From: Acinetobacter sp. C32I
GTDB taxonomy: Bacteria; Pseudomonadota; Gammaproteobacteria; Pseudomonadales; Moraxellaceae
Direction of reading: 5' to 3'
NCBI RefSeq assembly: GCF_023702715.1
Contig: NZ_CP098480.1
Coordinates: 2,852,001-2,916,000, forward strand
DNA length: 64,000 nt
This document shows, in pieces, positions 14,456-23,955 of the stretch (the stretch's first letter is position 1; every line of letters begins with the position of its first letter). A program made the position numbers and the translations under genes. The notes beneath the pieces are model-generated. The model made no database searches. It was not told the DNA's origin and saw only the letters and a list, made by a program, of their open reading frames with translations.

Positions 14456-14605
14456 ATGCAGCAAGCGATTGTCGGTTTTCATCTCGATGAAGAAGCTCAT
14501 TGGATAGCTGATCTTGCTTGTGGGCATGGGCAACATGTGCGCCATGATCCACCATGGCAGAATCGCCCTTGGGTGTTAACCGAACAAGGGCGGAATGAAA
14601 ATTAG
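14456..14605 (+). CDS. DUF3565 small protein
   Basis: A 49-residue gene whose ATG follows directly after the TAA of the OhrR-like gene (no spacer), so it is probably translated by reinitiation. It begins MQQAIVGFHLDEEAHW and contains LACGHGQHVRHDPPWQNRPWV, the conserved core of the DUF3565 family. The cluster of one Cys and several His (CGHGQHVRH) suggests metal binding, but no function is known to me. Linkage to a peroxide regulator suggests a stress role; that is inference. Confidence 0.8.
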   Translation: MQQAIVGFHLDEEAHWIADLACGHGQHVRHDPPWQNRPWVLTEQGRNEN

Positions 14606-14675
14606 GGGTGATGTTAGAATGTAAGTGGTGTGAAGATGTACAATTCGGATAAGAGATTTTATGTTAAATGATAAG

Positions 14676-14882
14676 CTATTCATTTGGATGAAATTCAAGT
14701 AAATCTTCAATATTACAATTAAAAAATTCACATAGTTTGTCTAAAACATCGATTTCTAAACGAACAGTTTCTTCTTTATACATATTATATAATGTATTTC
14801 TATTTATTCCTGTGGCTCTTGCAACATCTGAAACTTTAAGTTTCCTCTCTCCTAATATGTTAGATAATTTGCATTTAATCAT
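14676..14882 (-). CDS. Cro/CI-type HTH regulator of the restriction-modification island
   Basis: A small XRE-family DNA-binding protein of 68 residues from the ATG at 14882; an upstream ATG at 14918 would give 80. The HTH is visible as VSDVARATGINRNTLYNMY, and the tail DKLCEFFNCNIEDLLEF is typical of YozG/C-protein-like single-domain regulators. It is divergent from two methyltransferase genes with a perfect 25-bp palindrome between them, the layout of controller proteins in type II systems. It most likely represses the methyltransferase promoter and its own. Confidence 0.82.
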   Translation of the reverse strand: MIKCKLSNILGERKLKVSDVARATGINRNTLYNMYKEETVRLEIDVLDKLCEFFNCNIEDLLEFHPNE

Positions 14883-14911
14883 ACAGAGCCCGTAAATAGA
14901 TATATCAGTTG

Positions 14912-14939
14912 TTGACATTCAGCACTTGTAGTATAAAAT
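14912..14939 (+). promoter_or_regulatory. Candidate sigma-70 promoter for the methyltransferase operon
   Basis: TTGACA (14912-14917), a 16-base spacer and TAAAAT (14934-14939) face the methyltransferase genes. The -10 box overlaps the first bases of the palindrome at 14938-14962, so a bound regulator would block transcription start. This is read from sequence only. Confidence 0.5.
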
Positions 14940-14962
14940 AAATACCTGCTGTAGGTATTTAT
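14938..14962. promoter_or_regulatory. Perfect 10-bp-arm palindrome, candidate operator of the HTH regulator
   Basis: ATAAATACCT and AGGTATTTAT are exact reverse complements separated by GCTGT. It sits in the divergent region between the HTH regulator and the first methyltransferase, overlapping the predicted start of the methyltransferase transcript. Controller proteins of type II systems bind comparable dyads. Confidence 0.65.
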
Positions 14963-15030
14963 CTTGTGGTTAATATATATTTTATTATATGTAAGTACTC
15001 TTTTATAGATTTGTGGATTAATTTTTGTTT

Positions 15031-16167
15031 ATGAGTGAAAAATATAATGTTCTCGATCTTTTCTGTGGAACGGGTGGCATCTCTTATGGTTTGACTTCAG
15101 CAGACCCATCATTTCAGACTGTGATGGGAATTGATATGAATAAATCAGCTTGTCAGACTGCTCAAGCTAATCATAAACATGCAAATATTGTATGTGGAAA
15201 GATTGAGGATATAGATCCTGCAACTATAAAAGAAAAAATTGACGTTATTGTTGGTGGACCTCCATGCCAAGGATTTTCTTCGCTAAGACCATCTCGTGGA
15301 AAAAATTTAGAAGACCCAAGGAACAGCTTATATAAGTCTTTTATGCAATATGTAAAAGTACTACAACCTAAAGTTTTTCTAATGGAAAATGTTGTAGGTC
15401 TTGTTAATGCTAATGGAGGTCTTTTATTAGAGGATATTCAAGAAGGTTTTGATAAAGTTGGTTATGTTGTAGATTGGCGTATAGTAAATGCCGCAAATTA
15501 TGGTGTACCACAAAAACGTGAAAGATTCATTCTTATTGGGATTCGTAAAGATTTAGGCTTTACAGAAGTACTTTTTCCTACACCAACACATTATTTTTCA
15601 GGGAAAGTTATAGGAACTAAATTAAAAGATAAACATATTTTCAATACAGACTCTGGGTGTCCAGCTGTAACAGTGTGGGATGCAATATCTGATTTGCCAT
15701 CTATAAAGTCGGGAGAAGAAGCAACTCATTACCAGAGTACTCCTTTAAATGAATATCAAATTGAGCGAAGAAAATATTCGGTAGAAACCGTTAACTTACA
15801 TCAAGCAGCTAATCATTCTGAAAAAATGTTAGAAGTAATAAAGCATTCAGGTTCTAATATTAATGCTTTACCTCAAGGCTTAGTTTCAAGTGGATATAGT
15901 TCATGCTATTCAAGGCTAGGTAAAGATGATGTATCTACAACGATAACAGTAAAATTTACTTCTCCTGCTTCTAGTAAATGTATACATCCCTTAGACGACA
16001 GATCTATAACCCCAAGAGAAGCTGCTAGGTTACAAGGTTTTGATGATCATTTTATATTCTGTGGTTCAAAAACTGACATAGCAACTCAAATTGGTAATGC
16101 AGTTCCTCCTATTCTTGGTAGTGCTTTTGCTAACGTTTTTCTTAGTATTTTACGAAAGGATATTTAG
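15031..16167 (+). CDS. DNA cytosine-5 methyltransferase (first of a pair)
   Basis: A 378-residue SAM-dependent C5-cytosine methyltransferase. Motif I is DLFCGTGGIS (9-18), motif IV has the catalytic C79 in GGPPCQGFSS, motif VI is MENV (118-121), motif VIII is QKRERFILIG, and motif X includes RLQGFDDHF and QIGNAVPPILG. A target-recognition region lies between VIII and IX. I chose the ATG at 15031 over a TTG at 15025. Its stop is directly followed by the second methyltransferase, with no spacer. It is AT-rich compared with the flanking core genes. It would protect one strand of an asymmetric site if the system is of the BbvCI kind. Confidence 0.93.
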   Translation: MSEKYNVLDLFCGTGGISYGLTSADPSFQTVMGIDMNKSACQTAQANHKHANIVCGKIEDIDPATIKEKIDVIVGGPPCQGFSSLRPSRGKNLEDPRNSLYKSFMQYVKVLQPKVFLMENVVGLVNANGGLLLEDIQEGFDKVGYVVDWRIVNAANYGVPQKRERFILIGIRKDLGFTEVLFPTPTHYFSGKVIGTKLKDKHIFNTDSGCPAVTVWDAISDLPSIKSGEEATHYQSTPLNEYQIERRKYSVETVNLHQAANHSEKMLEVIKHSGSNINALPQGLVSSGYSSCYSRLGKDDVSTTITVKFTSPASSKCIHPLDDRSITPREAARLQGFDDHFIFCGSKTDIATQIGNAVPPILGSAFANVFLSILRKDI

Positions 16168-17481
16168 ATGGAACAGTTGTCTATAGATTTAGAAAGTACT
16201 AAGGACTTTAGCCGTTATAAACAAAGTACTAAGTTGAAAAAAGCATTGTGCTTATTTTCATCAGCGGGCATTGGTGAACTAGGTATAATTAGCAGTGGTA
16301 TTGAAATTGTTTTAGCAAATGAACTTTTACCAGAGAGAGTAAAATTATATAAAGAAAATTTTAAAACTGACAATATTATCGAAGGAGATATTTGGGAACT
16401 TCAAGATCGAATAGTCAGTAAAACAAATAAAATTCTACGCAATGATGAGCTCTTTTTGGTTTATGCAACGCCACCATGTCAGGGGATGTCTACTAATGGA
16501 ATGGGTAAATTAAAAAGTGAAATTGAAAAAGGAAAGCGTTCTGAAGAGGATAAAAGAAATAGGTTAATTATTCCCACTCTAACTATTGTTAAGCAGCTAA
16601 AACCAGAATGGGTACTTTTTGAAAATGTACCAGCCATGAAAAATACGGAAATACGTCTAGATGATAATTCTTATATGAATATTATTGAATATATTCGCCA
16701 AGAATTAGGTAATGACTATGATGGTTGTGCTGAGGTGGTCGCTTGTGAGGATCATGGTATTCCTCAAAAAAGAAGGCGACTTATTACTATCTTCACAAAA
16801 AATACTAAAGCGAAAGAATGGTTTAAATTAAATGGGAATACATTTTTTCCTTTAGCAATGAAAGAAAAAAAGATAACATTAAGAGATGCTATCGAGAACT
16901 TACCCCCTTTAGATGCAAGTGAAGGGAAAAATAAAAATACTGAATTCAATAAATATCATTTTGTTCCAATTATGAATCCTCGGAAATACTGGTGGATTAG
17001 TAATACAAAAGAAGGTACCACTGCATTTAATAATCAATGTATTAGTTGCGGATATACAGGTACACCAGGGCATAAAGATATTTTAGTAGATGGAAAGTGG
17101 ATTGCTTCTAAAGACACACCAATTTATTGTGATAACTGTAATGCTCTTTTACCAAGGCCAACTGTTGTAGATAAATTAGGAAATCATAGGCCTCTAAAAG
17201 GTTTTCATTCAGCCTATAGGCGCATGAAGTGGGATGAACCTGCACGAACATTGACTCAAAACTTTATATATGAAGCCTCTGATAACAAAGTACATCCTAG
17301 CCAAAATAGAGTTTTATCAATCTATGAAGCAATGATTCTACAGACGATTGACAAATATTCTTATGATTTTGAAATTGATGGTAAAGTTTTAAGTGCAGTC
17401 AAAATAGCAGAAGTCATTGGTGAATCAGTTCCTCCATACTTAATAGAGAAAATATCTAGATTGATGATTTCATTTGATTAA
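16168..17481 (+). CDS. DNA cytosine-5 methyltransferase (second of a pair), with Cys4 insertion
   Basis: A 437-residue C5-cytosine methyltransferase, divergent from its neighbour. Motif I is LFSSAGIGELGI (29-40), the catalytic C104 lies in ATPPCQGMS, motif VI is FENV (151-154), and motif VIII is QKRRRLITI (200-208). In the recognition region two CxxC pairs (C291/C294 and C321/C324) look like a zinc ribbon. DEPARTLTQNF and ESVPPYL are motifs IX and X. Its ATG directly follows the stop of the first methyltransferase, so the two are translated as a pair. Two different C5 enzymes suit an asymmetric recognition sequence, one for each strand. Confidence 0.92.
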   Translation: MEQLSIDLESTKDFSRYKQSTKLKKALCLFSSAGIGELGIISSGIEIVLANELLPERVKLYKENFKTDNIIEGDIWELQDRIVSKTNKILRNDELFLVYATPPCQGMSTNGMGKLKSEIEKGKRSEEDKRNRLIIPTLTIVKQLKPEWVLFENVPAMKNTEIRLDDNSYMNIIEYIRQELGNDYDGCAEVVACEDHGIPQKRRRLITIFTKNTKAKEWFKLNGNTFFPLAMKEKKITLRDAIENLPPLDASEGKNKNTEFNKYHFVPIMNPRKYWWISNTKEGTTAFNNQCISCGYTGTPGHKDILVDGKWIASKDTPIYCDNCNALLPRPTVVDKLGNHRPLKGFHSAYRRMKWDEPARTLTQNFIYEASDNKVHPSQNRVLSIYEAMILQTIDKYSYDFEIDGKVLSAVKIAEVIGESVPPYLIEKISRLMISFD

Positions 17482-17508
17482 AATGGAAGGGGCTACCCTT
17501 CCATTTTT
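17480..17508. terminator. Bidirectional terminator between methyltransferase and nuclease genes
   Basis: A 12-bp stem (AAAATGGAAGGG / CCCTTCCATTTT) with a 4-base loop lies between the convergent second methyltransferase and the nuclease operon. A-runs and T-runs on both sides let it work in both directions. Confidence 0.85.
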
Positions 17509-17510
17509 AT

Positions 17511-18260
17511 TTACATTAGGAAATTATTTTTTCTGAAATAATCAATATATTTTTGCTCGCTTGAGTAAAGAATCAAGGAGTTTTTGAGCTTAGAAATACC
17601 ATCTTTATTTAAAGAAGTATTGCTTGTTTTCTTATTTTCAGCTTTTCCTAGGCTAACCTTATTCCAGTCTTCCTCAATTAAGTTACAGAAAAATAAAGCT
17701 TTTATTTGTGGCATGCCATTATTGTATTCACAAAAATCGTAGTATATACCTAATAAATTACATGCATGTCTATGATGTGCCCAATAGTTAATTGATGAAA
17801 TATCATTGATCCTAGGCTTTCCTATAGGAAAATCTTTTGCGGCCCCTTTGAGAGAGCCGATAGAGGCCTTGACTTCAATACCATTAAATTGAAAAGGTGC
17901 TAAAAAGGATCTAATGGGTAACTTTGTAATTTGATCAAAGCATTCTTCATTAAAGTGTTTAACGATCGAAGCATTCTCCAAATGCAGAATATCAGGTCTT
18001 CCATCTGGATGTGGATTAGGAATGAAGTTTTTATCTAGTTCACAAATAACTTTTTTGAAAATTTCACCTAAGAAACCACTTAGATTCCGTTGATTTAATA
18101 TTTCATAAAAGCTATCTGTCGTTGAAAAAAAACTAGGTAAATTTATTAAATATTCGTTAGTTATCTTAACGGCCTTTTGTAAAGTTTCTGGTGAAATAGA
18201 ACATGTGATGGCTTTAGGATGGGATGTCGAAGAATATTTAATGTTACATGAACTGTTCAT
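17511..18260 (-). CDS. Predicted restriction endonuclease subunit B (PD-(D/E)XK)
   Basis: A 249-residue protein with no family I can name with certainty. A nuclease core is visible: E66 in LSGFLGE, D90 in DGRPDIL, and E129-x-K131 in GIEVKAS, the usual PD...ExK layout. It aligns along its length with the 227-residue protein encoded just upstream (LSG-GE, NP-DG-PD, GIEVK, WAHHRH versus WKAHHQY, PQI-A, DW), so the two are paralogues. Its start overlaps the upstream gene by 17 bases, implying coupled synthesis. With two C5 methyltransferases next door, the likely role is one half of a heterodimeric restriction enzyme. Confidence 0.72.
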   Translation of the reverse strand: MNSSCNIKYSSTSHPKAITCSISPETLQKAVKITNEYLINLPSFFSTTDSFYEILNQRNLSGFLGEIFKKVICELDKNFIPNPHPDGRPDILHLENASIVKHFNEECFDQITKLPIRSFLAPFQFNGIEVKASIGSLKGAAKDFPIGKPRINDISSINYWAHHRHACNLLGIYYDFCEYNNGMPQIKALFFCNLIEEDWNKVSLGKAENKKTSNTSLNKDGISKLKNSLILYSSEQKYIDYFRKNNFLM

Positions 18261-18927
18261 AACCTATTCCTTCTTGAAAACAAATGAGTCCTTGTTTGAT
18301 TTTCATAAAACCAGATGTCTCTGTTTGGCAAAAAGAAGTCATGGTACTGCCTTCTTTGGGTTTTTGGGTAACAGTCCAATCAGAAGTAGTCAAATTGTTG
18401 GCATAATAAATCGCAATAATTTGTGGGATGTTAGCTATATAATCGGAATGAATAGCTAATAAGTGATTGGTATATTGATGATGTGCTTTCCATACCAACT
18501 TTTTTTGAATCTTAAATAATCTACTTTCTCGTGGCTTTAGATCTGTCTTAGCTTTTTTTACTCCAAACGTATTTTTTACTTCTATTCCTCCATAAGGATA
18601 ATTTTTAAAATAGTTTGACGGGTAACTTTTGAAGTCTTTATCTTGAATAGTTGATATATCACAAAGATCAGGATAGCCATCAATATCAGGATTTTTTAAT
18701 AACTTTCCTTTGCTAATGAAACTTAACTCAGCGATTAACATTTCACCAATTAGCCCACTTAACATTCTTAGATCAATAATGTCATAGATATCTAGAGGAA
18801 CCTCTTTAGCTGTATCTAATTGAGCTGATTTTAGTTTATGATTTACATTGATAGCAGCTTCTACTATCAAATTAGTGGGAAAATCACCATTACTATAAGA
18901 AATTTTTCCAGAATTAATAATCTTCAA
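18244..18927 (-). CDS. Predicted restriction endonuclease subunit A (PD-(D/E)XK)
   Basis: A 227-residue paralogue of the following gene. The same catalytic pattern is present: E62 in LSGLIGE, D87 in DGYPDLC, and E116-x-K118 in GIEVKNT. Both copies keep all three positions, so neither looks inactive. It is the first gene of a two-gene minus-strand operon whose 3' end meets the methyltransferase operon. I infer a BbvCI- or Bpu10I-like arrangement, in which two related subunits each cut one strand of an asymmetric site. The recognition sequence cannot be read from the sequence. Confidence 0.72.
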   Translation of the reverse strand: MKIINSGKISYSNGDFPTNLIVEAAINVNHKLKSAQLDTAKEVPLDIYDIIDLRMLSGLIGEMLIAELSFISKGKLLKNPDIDGYPDLCDISTIQDKDFKSYPSNYFKNYPYGGIEVKNTFGVKKAKTDLKPRESRLFKIQKKLVWKAHHQYTNHLLAIHSDYIANIPQIIAIYYANNLTTSDWTVTQKPKEGSTMTSFCQTETSGFMKIKQGLICFQEGIGYEQFM

Positions 18928-19371
18928 AATTAGAACCTTAAATAATAAAAGCCCATAATTTATATGAAATTAATAACTTAAAGAAAGAAAAAGATTTTTT
19001 TTAAAGACGAATATTTAATTTACCTAAAATTAACATAATACGCCTTATGCGAAATAATTTAATTTTTAATTTTCAAATCAACACCTTATAAAAATACGTT
19101 CTAAAGTTCAGCCCACTAGAACGGATCTTTCGTCACTTTCCATGTCCCAAGCTCACTTTTTAATCATTATTTCCAATAATCAATTAGCCAAACTCAAGAA
19201 GAAAGAAAACCCTCTGCTTTCTTTCCTCTATCTAATTCTTAGATGCCGCCTTTTTCACAATAGACCTGCATATGTGCCAAAGCGAATTCTAGAACTATAG
19301 GTTCAAGTATTGACCTCAAGCTAACTTGAGATTTTATAGTGATTTTTTAATCTAAAAGTATGGATAGATGA
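18928..19371. other. Gene-free stretch between the restriction island and the SDR gene
   Basis: It is strongly AT-rich at its left end (18928-19090), where a promoter for the nuclease operon must lie. No intact gene is present. The right half contains the pyrE 3' fossil at 19239-19289, described separately. No insertion sequence, integrase or tRNA was recognised. Confidence 0.6.
19239..19289 (-). pseudogene. Fossil of the pyrE 3' end
   Basis: Seventeen minus-strand codons ending in TAA read EFALAHMQVYCEKGGI at the end. The intact pyrE product at 22439 ends [15 protein letters not shown]. About 11 of 16 positions agree, and the nucleotide match continues around the stop (TTAGATGCC). A pyrimidine-rich hairpin-like stretch lies beyond it (19199-19228), where the intact pyrE also has its terminator. 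It marks the left edge of the accessory segment 19290-22438. Confidence 0.7.
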
Positions 19372-20091
19372 ATGGATAACTCGAATCAAACATTTCTCAT
19401 CTACGGCGTCAGTAAAGGCCTAGGAAAAGCCATTGTTCAAGTTGTACCAAAGCCAACAGATACCATCTATGGTGTCTCTCGCACCCAACCACAAGAAATG
19501 CCGAATTTAAACTGGATTCGTGCTGATCTATCCAAACCAGAACAGGCTGTAAGCGATGTAAAGGCAACAATTGGACAGCAAAAACTTGATGTGCTGATTT
19601 ACAATGTGGGTATTTGGGAACAACAGGCTTTTAGCAACAACTATAATTTTGAAAATGTTTCTGCTGCTGAAATCAACCAAATCATTCATACCAATATCAC
19701 AACCTGTATCCTGTCAATCCAATCTCTTATTGAAAATCTAAAACTCTCTAACAACGCCAAAATCATTCTAATCGGCTCAACGTGGGGTGTTGATAATCAT
19801 AATGGTAAAGAACTTGTTTTCTCCGCTACCAAATTTGCGTTAAGGGGCATTGCGCAATCACTACGAGAAATCTTACGTGAGCACTTGATTGGAGTCAGTG
19901 TGCTGAATTTGGGCTATCTAGCCAGTGAATATGAAATTGAAAAAGCAACTCAAGATATTTTAGAAGAAACGAAATACTCTCTTATTCCTTTAGCCGATGT
20001 GGTTCAGGCAATTCACTTTATTCTTTCAACCACTAAGGCAAGCTGTGTTAAAGAAATCTTGATGCCTGCGATGTTGGATCCGAATGTTTAG
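19372..20091 (+). CDS. SDR-family protein lacking the catalytic tyrosine
   Basis: A 239-residue short-chain dehydrogenase/reductase-fold protein. The dinucleotide loop is GVSKGLG (12-18) instead of TGxxxGxG, and the NAG motif is replaced by YNVG (77-80). In the catalytic set S136 and K154 are present but the expected Tyr is F150 (FSATKFA). A classical oxidoreductase mechanism is therefore doubtful; it may be a sensor or bind substrate without turnover. It lies in the accessory segment left of pyrE. No partner gene is evident. Confidence 0.75.
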   Translation: MDNSNQTFLIYGVSKGLGKAIVQVVPKPTDTIYGVSRTQPQEMPNLNWIRADLSKPEQAVSDVKATIGQQKLDVLIYNVGIWEQQAFSNNYNFENVSAAEINQIIHTNITTCILSIQSLIENLKLSNNAKIILIGSTWGVDNHNGKELVFSATKFALRGIAQSLREILREHLIGVSVLNLGYLASEYEIEKATQDILEETKYSLIPLADVVQAIHFILSTTKASCVKEILMPAMLDPNV

Positions 20092-20095
20092 CTGT

Positions 20096-20932
20096 TTATG
20101 AATACTCCAAATAGCCAACATAAGATGAACCAATACATTCAAAGCCCATTTGTCGGTAAAGTTCTATTGCAGAGGTGTTATCTATATCGGCAACAAGGTG
20201 TGCCGTACGCCCACTCTCAACGATTTGATTGACTGCAAACGCCACCACACACTCAGCATAGCCCTGCCGACGATAGGCAGGAAAGGTATACGTTCCGCCT
20301 AGACTGACTAAACGATGAGTTTCAATCCCGAATCGGACGATTGAGACAATCTGACCCTCAACCTCATACACAACAACTTTCGCTTGCTGAATAAGTACAT
20401 CCCAATCAGATCGTTCATCTACCGAGCGTTCTTGGTTGTATAAGTGCTGATATTCAATCAGACGAGGAATATCTGAAGTAATCGCTAAACGGCCACTTGT
20501 CTGTGGGAAACGACGTGTACAGACCATAATCCATTGATCATACTGTCGTAATATGCTCACTTGATGCCCTGCCACAGAACGCAATACATCACGGCCAAAA
20601 GATGTAGTGACAATTCGAAGTGGCTGAAGTTTAAGAATCTCTGAACAAAGCAATCCAGCAGAGCTGCTTTCCTCAGGTAACCAAAAACAAGTCCCTCTGG
20701 CAAGTATGGCTGCAACACCAAGGAGCTCATTAGGCTGGTTAGAATCATATAGTCTTAACAGCTGCCACTGTGTATCAATCACTTGTGTCCGATCAAGAAA
20801 TACGGTGATCCCAAGAGAGTGATAAAATCGAGCATCCAGCCATTGAGAAATGAGTTGGCACTCATTTTGGGATGTAAAAAATCCTCTTATAATTTTCACA
20901 TCAGGATTTGCCTGCTCAATCTTGTTTTTCAC
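20096..20932 (-). CDS. GNAT-family N-acetyltransferase
   Basis: A 278-residue protein with a C-terminal GNAT domain. Residues about 190-278 carry the acetyl-CoA pyrophosphate loop YRRQGYAE and the closing DNTSAIELYRQMGFE motif. The N-terminal half looks like a degenerate acetyltransferase-like domain (strands around QWQLLRLY and LRIVTTSFGRD). The substrate is unknown. It is convergent with the SDR gene, with 4 bases between the stops, and divergent from the second D-Ala-D-Ala ligase. Confidence 0.82.
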   Translation of the reverse strand: MKNKIEQANPDVKIIRGFFTSQNECQLISQWLDARFYHSLGITVFLDRTQVIDTQWQLLRLYDSNQPNELLGVAAILARGTCFWLPEESSSAGLLCSEILKLQPLRIVTTSFGRDVLRSVAGHQVSILRQYDQWIMVCTRRFPQTSGRLAITSDIPRLIEYQHLYNQERSVDERSDWDVLIQQAKVVVYEVEGQIVSIVRFGIETHRLVSLGGTYTFPAYRRQGYAECVVAFAVNQIVESGRTAHLVADIDNTSAIELYRQMGFECIGSSYVGYLEYS

Positions 20933-21257
20933 TTTTCTTTTCTCTAACTGTAGTTACGATCAATTTGAAACAAATGAAAATATCTTTGATATCTAAGTTA
21001 ATTTTCAACAATAAGCTAAATATTTTAATTCTTTATTTTATTAAAAGATTATTGAGCTTTAGCTAACCTAGAAATGAAGAAAAATATGTCGTAACCAATA
21101 GTAATCAATCATTCTGTAATGGCTTCCCTTCTCCCTTGATATTCAGATAAATTTAGCTAAGTGTCACAAATATTAATCATGATGTTACATCATTCAGAGG
21201 TACATTAAGGTTTGGTTTTTAACTGAAAATTTAGTAAATATTTAAGGAAATATAGGA
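20933..21257. other. Divergent promoter region, no gene
   Basis: An AT-rich stretch between the GNAT gene and the second ligase gene. It should contain both promoters. I see no strong palindrome, no intact reading frame and no terminator. AAGGAAATATAGGA just before 21258 supplies the ribosome site of the ligase. Confidence 0.5.
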
Positions 21258-22367
21258 ATGCAGAAGAAAAATATTGGCATTATATTTGGGGGGAAATCTA
21301 CCGAGCACGAGGTTTCGCTTCAGTCTGCAAGAAATATTGTTGATGCGATAGATCGAGAAAAATTTGATGTGACATTAATCGGTATCGATAAAAATGGAAT
21401 ATGGCATCTGAATAAAAGTACTCATTTTTTATTAAATTCAGACAATCCATCTCTCATTTCACTACATCAATCAGGACGAAATATTGCGTTCATTCCAGGG
21501 AAAAATGAAAAACAAATCATAGAGTTTCAAAACAAAACGCTATCGCAATTGGATGTGATCTTTCCGATCGTTCACGGAACACTTGGAGAAGATGGGTCAT
21601 TGCAAGGATTGCTAAGAATGGTGAACCTTCCATTTGTTGGTTCTCAAGTCCTCAGTTCTGCCATGTGTATGGATAAAGATATAACCAAAAGATTATTAAG
21701 AGATGCTGGCTTAAATATTACCCCCTTCATAAAGCTAATGAAGAAAAATAGAAAAGATATCAGCTTCGAAATTGCAAGTTCACAATTAGGCTGCCCATTA
21801 TTCATTAAACCCGCTAATCAGGGTTCATCAGTAGGTGTGAGTAAAGTCACCACTCAAGATGAATTTGAAACAGCTCTAGATACAGCATTCATTTACGACA
21901 ATAAAGTTTTGATTGAGCAAGGAATTGATGGCAGAGAAATAGAATGTGCCGTTATCGGCAACAGTGAACCTTTAGCGAGTGTTTGCGGAGAAATTGAACT
22001 GGAAGATAGTTTCTATTCTTACGACACAAAATATATTAATGATAAAGGCGCAACAGTAACGATACCTGCAAATATATCGGATGAAATCAGTCAAAAAATT
22101 AGAGAGATCTCAATTAAAGCCTATGAAGTTTTGGAATGCACTGGACTCGCAAGGGTTGATGTTTTTTTAACAAAAAATGGAGAAGTTTTTATTAATGAAA
22201 TAAATACTTTACCGGGCTTTACCAACATAAGTATGTTTCCAAAACTATGGGAAGCGAGTGGACTACGTTATTCTGACCTCATTACCCGTTTAATAGAATT
22301 AGCGATCGAACATCATGAAAATAATGCTCAGCTACAAAATACAGTTTCTTTAAACAAGAAAGAGTAA
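21258..22367 (+). CDS. D-alanine--D-alanine ligase, accessory DdlA-like copy
   Basis: A 369-residue ATP-grasp ligase of the longer DdlA type. Motifs: FGGKSTEHEVSLQSARNI at the start, HGTLGEDGSLQGLLRM, the KPANQGSSVGVSKV loop, and EINTLPGFTNISMFP at the end. The omega loop reads FYSYDTKY, with the Tyr of D-Ala-D-Ala ligases rather than the residues of VanA- or VanC-type enzymes, so a change to D-Lac or D-Ser is unlikely. It is more AT-rich than ddlB at 8424 and lies in the segment bounded by the pyrE fossil, which suggests transfer. Duplicated Ddl can raise tolerance to D-cycloserine; that is inference. Confidence 0.92.
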   Translation: MQKKNIGIIFGGKSTEHEVSLQSARNIVDAIDREKFDVTLIGIDKNGIWHLNKSTHFLLNSDNPSLISLHQSGRNIAFIPGKNEKQIIEFQNKTLSQLDVIFPIVHGTLGEDGSLQGLLRMVNLPFVGSQVLSSAMCMDKDITKRLLRDAGLNITPFIKLMKKNRKDISFEIASSQLGCPLFIKPANQGSSVGVSKVTTQDEFETALDTAFIYDNKVLIEQGIDGREIECAVIGNSEPLASVCGEIELEDSFYSYDTKYINDKGATVTIPANISDEISQKIREISIKAYEVLECTGLARVDVFLTKNGEVFINEINTLPGFTNISMFPKLWEASGLRYSDLITRLIELAIEHHENNAQLQNTVSLNKKE

Positions 22368-22398
22368 TCGTATTTTCCCGCTCAAAACCAAAGAATAA

Positions 22399-22422
22399 AA
22401 AAGGAAGCCTTCGCTTCCTTTT
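22399..22422. terminator. Bidirectional terminator between ligase and pyrE
   Basis: AAAAGGAAGC and GCTTCCTTTT pair over a CTTC loop, with an A-run before and a T-run after, between the convergent second ligase gene and pyrE. Confidence 0.88.
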
Positions 22423-22438
22423 CGTTTACATCTAAAAC

Positions 22439-23089
22439 TTAGATGCCATATTTTTCACGATAAGCCTGCATATTGGCTAAAGCGTCTTTTTCGCCTTTCG
22501 TATCTAGATAATCCATCAAATCTTTCATGGTAATCAATGCATGTACTGGAATTTCGAGTTCTTTTTGTACTTCCTGAATCGCAGAAAGCTCACCTTGACC
22601 ACGTTCCTGACGATCTAACGCCACCAATACACCTGCAATTTCAGCACCTGCATTTTTTAAGATGGTCACAACTTCACGAATCGCTGTCCCCGCAGTGATC
22701 ACATCATCAATGATCCAAACTTTTTGACCTGCAACCGATGCACCCACCAACACACCGCCTTCACCATGATCTTTGGCTTCTTTACGGTTAAAGCCCCAAG
22801 GTACGCTTTTGCCGTGCACTTGAGACAAGGCCACCGCTGTTGCTGCAACAAAAGGAATCCCTTTATAGGCTGGGCCAAAAATCACACCGACATTGTCGCA
22901 CTGCACCAGTTTATCGGCATAGCCTTGCGCTAACAAAGACAGTGCTTCACCATCGTTTAACAAACCTGCGTTAAAGAAATAAGGACTGACACGGCCTGAT
23001 TTTAAGGTAAACTCACCAAATTTAAGCACTCCACGTGATAATGCGAGTTCGATAAAAGCTTGCGGATGAAATGACACAGGCGTTGTCAT
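22439..23089 (-). CDS. pyrE: Orotate phosphoribosyltransferase
   Basis: Converts orotate and PRPP to OMP in pyrimidine synthesis. It has 216 residues from [15 protein letters not shown]; a longer frame to 23185 overlaps crc and lacks support. The PRPP loop is [15 protein letters not shown], and the [10 protein letters not shown] and [15 protein letters not shown] motifs are typical of the family. It is divergent from crc, the same neighbour as in Pseudomonas. Its last codons are duplicated at 19239-19289. Confidence 0.97.
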
Positions 23090-23130
23090 ATAAAGTGCTC
23101 CAAATTCTTCAATTGAGGTTAAACAGACGT

Positions 23131-23955
23131 ATGATACCAAAGGATAGCTATCCAAGTGATGTAAAAATTCTTCGAGTCGTTTCAATTAACGTAAATGGCT
23201 TGCGCTCATCAGTCACCAAAGGCCTACTCGAATGGTTAGAACAGTCGGGTGCCGATGTGGTGTGTATGCAGGAAAGCCGCATCACTCATGAACAATGGAC
23301 CGATAAATTTAAACCTGAAGGCTGGTATACCCACCTGTTCCCTGCTGAACGCGCAGGCTACGCAGGTACGGCGATTTATAGCCGTCTGCCATTCGTGTCA
23401 GTGAAAGATGGTCTAGGCTTTGAACTCGCTGATTCTCAAGGGCGTTTTACCACAGCTGAATTTGATTTAGGGCTGTCACAAACTGTTCATATTGCCTCGT
23501 TATACTTGCCATCAGGATCAAGCGGTGACGAAGCGCAAGCACGCAAAGACGTGTTTTTACAAGAATACGCCAAAATACTCAAACAGTGGCGAGATGAAAA
23601 TAAATCAATCATTGTCTGTGGGGATTATAATATCGTGCATAAACGCATCGATATTAAAAACTGGTCAGGTAACCAGAAATCTTCTGGGGTTCTGCCACAT
23701 GAACGTGCTTGGCTCGATCATATGTATGACGAGTTAGGTTATGTGGATACTTTCCGCGAAGTTCGCCCTGAAGCAGAATTGTATTCATGGTGGTCAAATC
23801 GCGGTCAAGCACGTGCGAAAAATGTTGGGTGGCGTATCGACTACCATTCATGCTCTCCAGACTGGAAAGCACGCACAACAAATGCATGGGTCTATAAAGA
23901 ACAATGGTTTAGCGACCATGCACCCGTGATTATCGACTACAAAATACACGAATAA
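23131..23955 (+). CDS. crc: Crc-like protein of the exonuclease III family
   Basis: A 274-residue EEP-fold protein starting at the ATG at 23131. Position beside pyrE and the motifs [17 protein letters not shown] and PHERAWLD point to Crc, the Hfq partner in carbon catabolite repression of pseudomonads. Unlike Pseudomonas Crc, which as I recall it lost the nuclease residues (GSLYVAH and SQHAP), this protein keeps [13 protein letters not shown] and SDHAP, the Glu, Asp/Asn and Asp/His of active exonuclease III. It could be a working nuclease, a Crc, or both. Only 41 bases separate its start from that of pyrE. Confidence 0.85.

What the first reader, a model, noticed from the sequence alone, without database searches (positions are those of the whole stretch)
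14676..18927. Restriction-modification island with paired C5 methyltransferases and paired nuclease subunits (BbvCI/Bpu10I-like)
Seen: two different C5-cytosine methyltransferases joined stop-to-start, and two homologous nuclease-like proteins overlapping by 17 bases, each with an intact PD...ExK core (D90/E129/K131 and D87/E116/K118). Known: BbvCI and Bpu10I cut asymmetric sites with two related subunits, each cleaving one strand, and have two C5 methyltransferases. Inference: this is a new member of that rare class. If so, mutating one subunit should give a strand-specific nicking enzyme. The dedicated HTH regulator and palindrome add a control layer. The recognition site is unknown.
Basis: partly seen in the sequence, partly recalled or inferred. 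Interest (0 to 1): 0.78.

Follow-up and report, generated by a model that had tools for sequence, protein, structure and literature searches.

The report
Two-subunit restriction system in Xer cassette
A bacterium (probably an Acinetobacter) carries a complete restriction-modification system whose DNA cutter is probably built from two different halves, each cutting one strand, and the whole set sits as a foreign cassette in a chromosomal spot where some related bacteria carry other anti-virus cassettes.

Summary
A divergent HTH gene, two C5-cytosine methyltransferases joined stop-to-start (M1, M2) and two homologous PD...ExK proteins overlapping by 17 bases (R_B then R_A) form one compact island. 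The Type IIT reading (two-subunit enzyme, asymmetric site, one methyltransferase per strand) is the best explanation. The named family is not: the nucleases are relatives of BsaAI (34% and 39% identical), not detectably of BbvCI/Bpu10I. All nine outside loci with an A-type nuclease have a B-type one beside it; two further loci hold a single nuclease with a single M2-type methyltransferase. A and B form separate clades (support 100/99 and 100/100) and co-diverge (r = 0.92). BsaAI cuts YACGTR and BmgBI, cited as Type IIT, CACGTC, so I predict an asymmetric NACGTN' site cut blunt; the site was not shown, and an avoidance test was negative. The island (GC 32% against 41%) lies exactly between two inversely oriented Xer/dif sites. 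At the same locus, 12 of 51 fetched genus genomes (partly chosen for it) also have two dif sites, with other cargo: 6 of those 12 carry a recognisable defence system. This chromosomal slot may be the more novel part.

The parts
14642..14669 (+). left Xer/dif-like site (XerC arm, 6-bp spacer GAGATT, XerD arm), just after the DUF3565 gene
   Evidence: pattern match without mismatch; with up to 3 mismatches allowed 0.13 matches expected in the whole window; dif-like sites at the same place in some other genomes of the genus
14676..14918 (-). XRE/HTH_26 regulator, 80 aa, divergent from M1
   Evidence: HTH_26, E 2e-22; among the loci searched (L001-L015) only L015 has a weak relative besides the window's own copies
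14912..14939 (+). promoter-like TTGACA-16-TAAAAT facing M1 (11 of 12 consensus bases)
   Evidence: a consensus match only (11 sites found in the region, 22.6 expected from shuffles)
14935..14965 (.). inverted repeat AAAATAAATACCT-5-AGGTATTTATCTT overlapping the -10 element: likely operator (inference)
15031..16167 (+). M1, C5-cytosine DNA methyltransferase, 378 aa
16168..17481 (+). M2, C5-cytosine DNA methyltransferase, 437 aa, of the type found beside the single nucleases of L005 and L007
17480..17507 (+). terminator-like hairpin between the convergent M and R operons
   Evidence: 2 found in the region, 2.1 expected
17511..18260 (-). R_A, nuclease subunit A, GRPD90...E129-V-K131, 249 aa
18244..18927 (-). 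R_B, nuclease subunit B, GYPD87...E116-V-K118, 227 aa, TTG start
19028..19055 (-). right Xer/dif site ATTTCGCATAAGGCGTATTATGTTAATT, inverted relative to the left one, so that both XerD arms face inward (a D module)
   Evidence: its 26-base core is identical to a site on the genome's own 8.3-kb second contig

Best explanation
It is a Type II restriction-modification system of the Type IIT kind built from BsaAI-family parts. R_B and R_A, translated from one overlapping operon, pair into a heterodimer. Each subunit reads one half of a non-palindromic site with an ACGT core (NACGTN', of which CACGTC, the BmgBI/AjiI site, is my first guess) and cuts one strand, giving blunt ends. Because the site is asymmetric, M1 and M2 each methylate the core cytosine of one strand. 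The divergent HTH protein binds the palindrome over the M1-M2 promoter and tunes methyltransferase expression. The set came in as a foreign Xer/dif module. Shown by computation: gene content, homology, motifs, conserved pairing, separate A and B clades, dif boundaries, foreign composition. Inferred: heterodimer, site, cut position, division of labour of M1 and M2, regulation, Xer transfer.
For: A-B homology. BsaAI (record name, UniRef E5LGA6) matches R_A (34% over 236 aligned positions, E 2e-39) and R_B (39% over 193, E 5e-38), both closer than A is to B. Of 11 outside loci, the 9 with an A-type nuclease all have B upstream of A on the same strand with overlapping open frames; the other two (L005, L007) have one full-length nuclease and one M2-type methyltransferase. 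44 distinct longest-contig lengths are shared between 120 listed A-type and 111 listed B-type proteins, which suggests further pairs. A and B clades 100/99 and 100/100. A-A and B-B identities correlate, r 0.915, Mantel p 0.0005, 9 loci. Catalytic residues invariant in both sets. Two methyltransferases in all 9 paired loci of the trees: M1+M2 in 6 with the window, two M2-type in 3. Models of both subunits (pLDDT 92) rank PD-(D/E)XK restriction enzymes first, mostly blunt or 3'-overhang cutters (fold class and cleavage types are recalled). BsaAI site YACGTR (PMC10495008), BmgBI site CACGTC (PMC6153268), BmgBI named as a Type IIT enzyme whose two subunits or domains both recognise and cut (PMC4081073).
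Confidence: 0.72

Rival explanations
1. R_A and R_B form two separate homodimers with two palindromic sites, each protected by one methyltransferase: two R-M systems fused in one locus.
For: BsaAI-like single-nuclease systems exist (L005, L007); two methyltransferases are present; BsaAI's own site is palindromic.
Against: All 9 outside loci with an A-type nuclease keep B beside it, in fixed order with overlapping open frames, and A and B co-diverge. In 3 of 9 tree loci both methyltransferases are of the M2 type, as expected when one site is split into two strands.
Confidence: 0.13
2. A direct member of the BbvCI/Bpu10I family.
For: Same four-gene logic: two related subunits and two C5 methyltransferases.
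Against: No BbvCI sequence match with any of three family profiles; kin is BsaAI; fold neighbours differ from the SgrAI/NgoMIV kin reported for BbvCI, though unlisted folds are not excluded.
Confidence: 0.04
3. One subunit carries recognition and cutting and the other is a helper or a decaying copy (BsrDI-like, or degenerating).
For: Some Type IIT enzymes work with a small subunit that lacks sequence specificity (PMC4081073 section 35).
Against: Similar sizes, and catalytic residues invariant in both across alignments of 45 and 38 sequences; similar identity of A and B to BsaAI.
Confidence: 0.08

Closest known systems
BsaAI (Geobacillus stearothermophilus, YACGTR)
   Same: Homologous nuclease over most of its length, with GYPD...GLEVK and the SGxxGE helix.
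   Different: Known here as one protein record (its own locus was not seen); here there are two diverged relatives, each nearer to BsaAI than to the other subunit, and two methyltransferases.
BmgBI / AjiI (CACGTC), Type IIT
   Same: Two similar-sized subunits or domains that both recognise and cut; ACGT core shared with BsaAI; AjiI is listed with BmgBI as its equivalent and is, as I recall, from Acinetobacter johnsonii.
   Different: No protein sequence was at hand to compare; the site of the present system is not determined. It may prove to be the same family.
BbvCI / Bpu10I
   Different: No detectable sequence kinship; different predicted fold neighbours; BbvCI gives 3-base 5' overhangs, here blunt ends are predicted.
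LlaJI (Lactococcus plasmid pNP40)
   Same: Two 5mC methyltransferases for an asymmetric site; a LlaJI methyltransferase is 31% identical to M2.
   Different: Its restriction part is an AAA family ATPase plus a LlaJI-family nuclease, unrelated in layout.
Acinetobacter dif modules (pdif / chromosomal dif modules)
   Same: Cargo between inversely oriented 28-bp Xer sites with the XerD arms inside (D module; definition in PMC13141974). Additional chromosomal dif sites and modules are known (PMC6449649; PMC12907356), and accessory segments of dif-module-bearing GR13 plasmids include R-M and an anti-phage system (PMC9455709).
   Different: In the passages seen I met no R-M system in a chromosomal dif module and no fixed chromosomal slot holding different defence systems in different genomes.

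Membership tests
Type IIT restriction-modification | two different catalytic sites in two subunits or domains | tested here: met
   Both subunits keep GxPD...GxEVK; residues invariant in alignments of 45 and 38 sequences. Catalysis itself not tested.
Type IIT restriction-modification | generally two methyltransferases, one per strand | tested here: met
   Two C5 methyltransferase genes with their motifs; strand assignment not tested.
Type IIT restriction-modification | asymmetric recognition sequence | not testable with these tools
   No methylome or cleavage data; site avoidance gave no signal.
BsaAI family | significant sequence similarity to BsaAI over most of its length | tested here: met
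   R_A E 2e-39; R_B E 5e-38.
BsaAI family | single nuclease gene with one methyltransferase | tested here: not met
   Two nuclease and two methyltransferase genes in the window; the single state is seen in L005 and L007; BsaAI's own locus was not seen.
BsaAI family | recognition of YACGTR | not testable with these tools
   Site not determined.
BbvCI/Bpu10I family | detectable sequence similarity to BbvCI subunits | tested here: not met
   Profiles A1, A2, A3 against all PDB chain sequences, E <= 10: no BbvCI. BbvCI entries are named in PMC6326814; I did not separately check that they are in the copy.
BbvCI/Bpu10I family | SgrAI/NgoMIV-like fold | tested here: inconclusive
   Searches list NaeI, SwaI, EcoRV, SfiI and similar; unlisted folds are not excluded.
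dif D module | inversely oriented XerC/XerD sites with XerD arms internal | tested here: met
   definition.
dif D module | moved by XerC/XerD | not testable with these tools
   Only indirect: other cargo at the same locus in other genomes.
LlaJI | McrBC-like restriction subunits | tested here: not met
   R_A and R_B have no Pfam match at E <= 1, ATPase or other.

The most novel reading that the evidence does not exclude
The stretch between the MarR-DUF3565 genes and the pyrE-like gene is a one-cassette slot in this genus: a fixed chromosomal pair of inverted dif sites through which Xer recombination swaps whole defence systems, and it is here filled by a BsaAI-family two-subunit R-M system that arose by duplication of the nuclease together with doubling of the methyltransferase. 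Bacteria would then change their anti-phage weapon the way integrons change resistance cassettes.
Probability: 0.4. Interest if true: 0.72.

Novelty: new member of a known kind. Interest (0 to 1): 0.56.

Why it matters
Related two-subunit restriction enzymes are described as rare (PMC6326814), and there the descent of an asymmetric enzyme from symmetric ones is argued from four enzymes of the BbvCI group. This family offers an independent case with both states alive today: single-nuclease/single-methyltransferase systems and paired ones, and two ways of supplying the second methyltransferase. It may also be a source of strand-specific nickases with an ACGT core. If the dif slot is real, it gives a simple natural system for studying how bacteria exchange defence genes.

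Tried and rejected
Pfam gives no match at E <= 1 for R_A or R_B; NCBIfam gives none for R_B and two for R_A far below their cut-offs. PADLOC's best model for both is one generic REase_II, PDLC03564. The 45 members of A1 scanned against Pfam: no meaningful family. The PDB sequence search with single proteins gave noise for R_A and nothing for R_B; the profiles A2 and A3 gave 3 and 2 unrelated chains at E above 1, A1 none. BbvCI chains do not appear in either VIA list; by the tool's own note that excludes nothing.

Recognition site by avoidance: hexamer counts in 464 kb of the own genome (window included) against 400 kb of one relative (G010) gave no signal: CACGTC -0.29 against -0.24; TACGTA -0.38 against -0.03, with an overall sd of 0.17. 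This does not support any particular site.

Recognition site through M1 or M2 relatives beside known enzymes: the best M1 relative outside the R loci, on Psychrobacter plasmid pA15BP4 (48.7%), has no annotated restriction partner in the 7.5 of 10.0 kb viewed; its 299-aa neighbour matches HTH families only. No lead.

A control-protein role for the HTH gene was considered; no close relative lies in the other loci, although L006 has a differently built HTH regulator beside its R genes. It is treated as a local regulator.

Zinc finger in M2: CISC/CDNC in the window copy; of the M2-type relatives only L005 also shows two CxxC, the others one; not claimed.

Papers: searches (10 of 10 used). Seen: PMC6326814 abstract, sections 3, 11, 17, 19 and passages; PMC4081073 section 35 and passages; PMC1459862, PMC12907356, PMC6449649, PMC9455709, PMC7315799, PMC13125923, PMC13141974, PMC6541035, PMC10495008, PMC6153268 passages only (parts of abstracts among them); others listings only. 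I found no paper on this R-M system or on this chromosomal slot in those searches; the library lacks most subscription papers. Against novelty: PMC6449649 found additional chromosomal dif sites in 19 of 20 chromosomes studied, and PMC9455709 names R-M and an anti-phage system among accessory segments of dif-module plasmids.
Full report
WHAT IS THERE. Between 14642 and 19055 the window holds five genes: a small HTH regulator on the minus strand, two C5-cytosine methyltransferases on the plus strand joined stop-to-start, and two nuclease genes on the minus strand overlapping by 17 bases. M1 most likely starts at ATG 15031. R_A and R_B are homologous (28%, E 2e-17; hhalign probability 100). GRPD90/E129-V-K131 and GYPD87/E116-V-K118 are invariant in alignments of 45 and 38 sequences, and a further glutamate is invariant in a helix before them (E66 in A, E62 in B). 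The own genome has no other PF00145 methyltransferase at E <= 0.001.

CONTROL REGION. An inverted repeat (14935-14947/14953-14965) overlaps the -10 element of a TTGACA-16-TAAAAT promoter-like site that faces M1. The simplest reading is that the HTH protein controls the methyltransferase operon. This is inference; promoter scans of this kind are weak (11 sites found, 22.6 expected), and the HTH gene has no close relative in the other loci searched, though L006 has another HTH regulator beside its R genes.

PAIRED AND SINGLE STATES. Searches of plasmids and phages with R_A, and of one genome for each of about 85,000 species and viral contigs with its profile, gave 11 outside loci. Nine have an A-type nuclease, and all nine have a B-type one upstream on the same strand with overlapping open frames. 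Two (L005, an E. coli plasmid; L007, a Streptococcus suis phage record) have one full-length nuclease with one M2-type methyltransferase. Because the queries were A-type, single loci are under-sampled: most of the 1952 wider relatives were not placed in loci. In L007 a short open frame upstream weakly resembles the nuclease family. In the nine paired loci of the trees (window plus eight; L014 left out), A forms one clade (100/99) and B another (100/100), apart from BsaAI and the single ones. Identities among A and among B correlate (r 0.915, Mantel p 0.0005). Six of the nine have M1+M2, three have two M2-type methyltransferases instead. M2 is 51% identical to the methyltransferase of L007, M1 32% by the same measure. 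The simplest history is duplication of a BsaAI-like nuclease, with the second methyltransferase supplied either by duplication of the M2 type or by recruitment of a distant one (M1). The paired system looks rare, within the reach of a pattern search: 7 loci in the species collection and, of 96 genomes searched (own and relatives), only the own one.

LIKELY SITE. BsaAI cuts YACGTR (PMC10495008). In that site the only cytosine present in every version of each strand is the one in ACGT, so a C5 methyltransferase protecting it should mark that base (my deduction). BmgBI recognises CACGTC (PMC6153268) and is cited beside BbvCI as a Type IIT enzyme whose two similar subunits or domains both recognise and cut (PMC4081073 section 35). 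AjiI is listed as its equivalent and comes, as I recall, from Acinetobacter johnsonii. The blunt cut of BsaAI and BmgBI, and the site TACGTA of SnaBI, are also recalled; the phage record L007 labels its nuclease 'R.SnaBI endonuclease'. I therefore predict an asymmetric NACGTN' site, CACGTC first. The one test I could run, site avoidance in the host, was negative.

XER BOUNDARIES. Both ends of the island are dif-like Xer sites, inverted relative to each other with the XerD arms inside, which is a D module in the terms of PMC13141974. In the own genome 8 places match the pattern with up to 2 mismatches (control with the pattern read backwards: 1), six of them perfectly: one at C1:902243 that I take as the main dif, these two, one at C1:3078758 and two on the 8.3-kb second contig, one of which shares the right-hand core. 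GC of the module is 31.7% against 41.4% (sd 2.5, minimum 34.3%) in 80 tiles of the same size.

THE SAME LOCUS ELSEWHERE. 70 of 119 genus genomes searched (own included) match the left flank at E <= 0.001. In 51 fetched regions, the phosphoribosyltransferase gene (pyrE by recall; Pfam Pribosyltran) lies downstream within the stretch in 42 (some stretches end early); 16 of 51 have a dif-like site (up to 3 mismatches) just after the DUF3565 gene, and 12 of 51 also have an inverted one further on (up to 2 mismatches). The first 11 regions were chosen partly because a site had been seen, so these fractions are not unbiased. All 25 cargo ORFs (60 aa or more) of the 12 were scanned with PADLOC; none lists the nuclease model of the present system. 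Six of 12 carry a recognisable system: C5 methyltransferase + HNH nuclease (L052), PD-T4-4 A+B (L054), methyltransferase + REase_II + control protein (L058), AbiLi (L059), a methyltransferase fused to an HpaII-type nuclease (L065), Septu PtuA+PtuB (L073). L055 has weaker hits to PD-T7-4 and PD-T4-9_C. L053, L057, L069 and L084 have none; L061 has no ORF. Two flanking genes of the window used as controls had no hit. Published work describes additional chromosomal dif sites and modules (PMC12907356, PMC6449649) and R-M and anti-phage genes on dif-module plasmids (PMC9455709); in the passages and searches seen I met no such chromosomal defence slot.

VERDICT.

Noticed in passing
window 14456-23185 and loci L052-L102: Chromosomal slot between the DUF3565 gene and a pyrE-like gene: 12 of 51 fetched genus genomes have two inverted dif-like sites there with different cargo, 6 of the 12 with a recognisable defence system; the first 11 genomes were partly picked for it.
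   Followed up: partly
L103 (own genome, contig C2, 8308 bases): Small plasmid-like contig with two pdif sites, one with the same core as the right end of the R-M module; it carries an Abi_2 abortive-infection-like gene at 427-1449.
   Followed up: partly
window 14456-14602: The DUF3565 ORF is short (49 aa, matching profile positions 1-43 of 58) and stops before the left dif site.
   Followed up: no
L007 5347-5715: Short ORF upstream of the single nuclease in the S. suis phage record with weak similarity to the nuclease family (E 6.8e-6), perhaps a remnant of a second subunit gene.
   Followed up: no
L060 818-1627: TIR-domain-like ORF (below the Pfam cut-off) at the same chromosomal locus in G107, with an imperfect left dif site and no right one found.
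   Followed up: no
L104 (own genome C1:3076500-3081500): A second pair of inverted dif-like sites about 0.7 kb apart on the chromosome (C1:3078758 and 3079439); cargo not examined.
   Followed up: no
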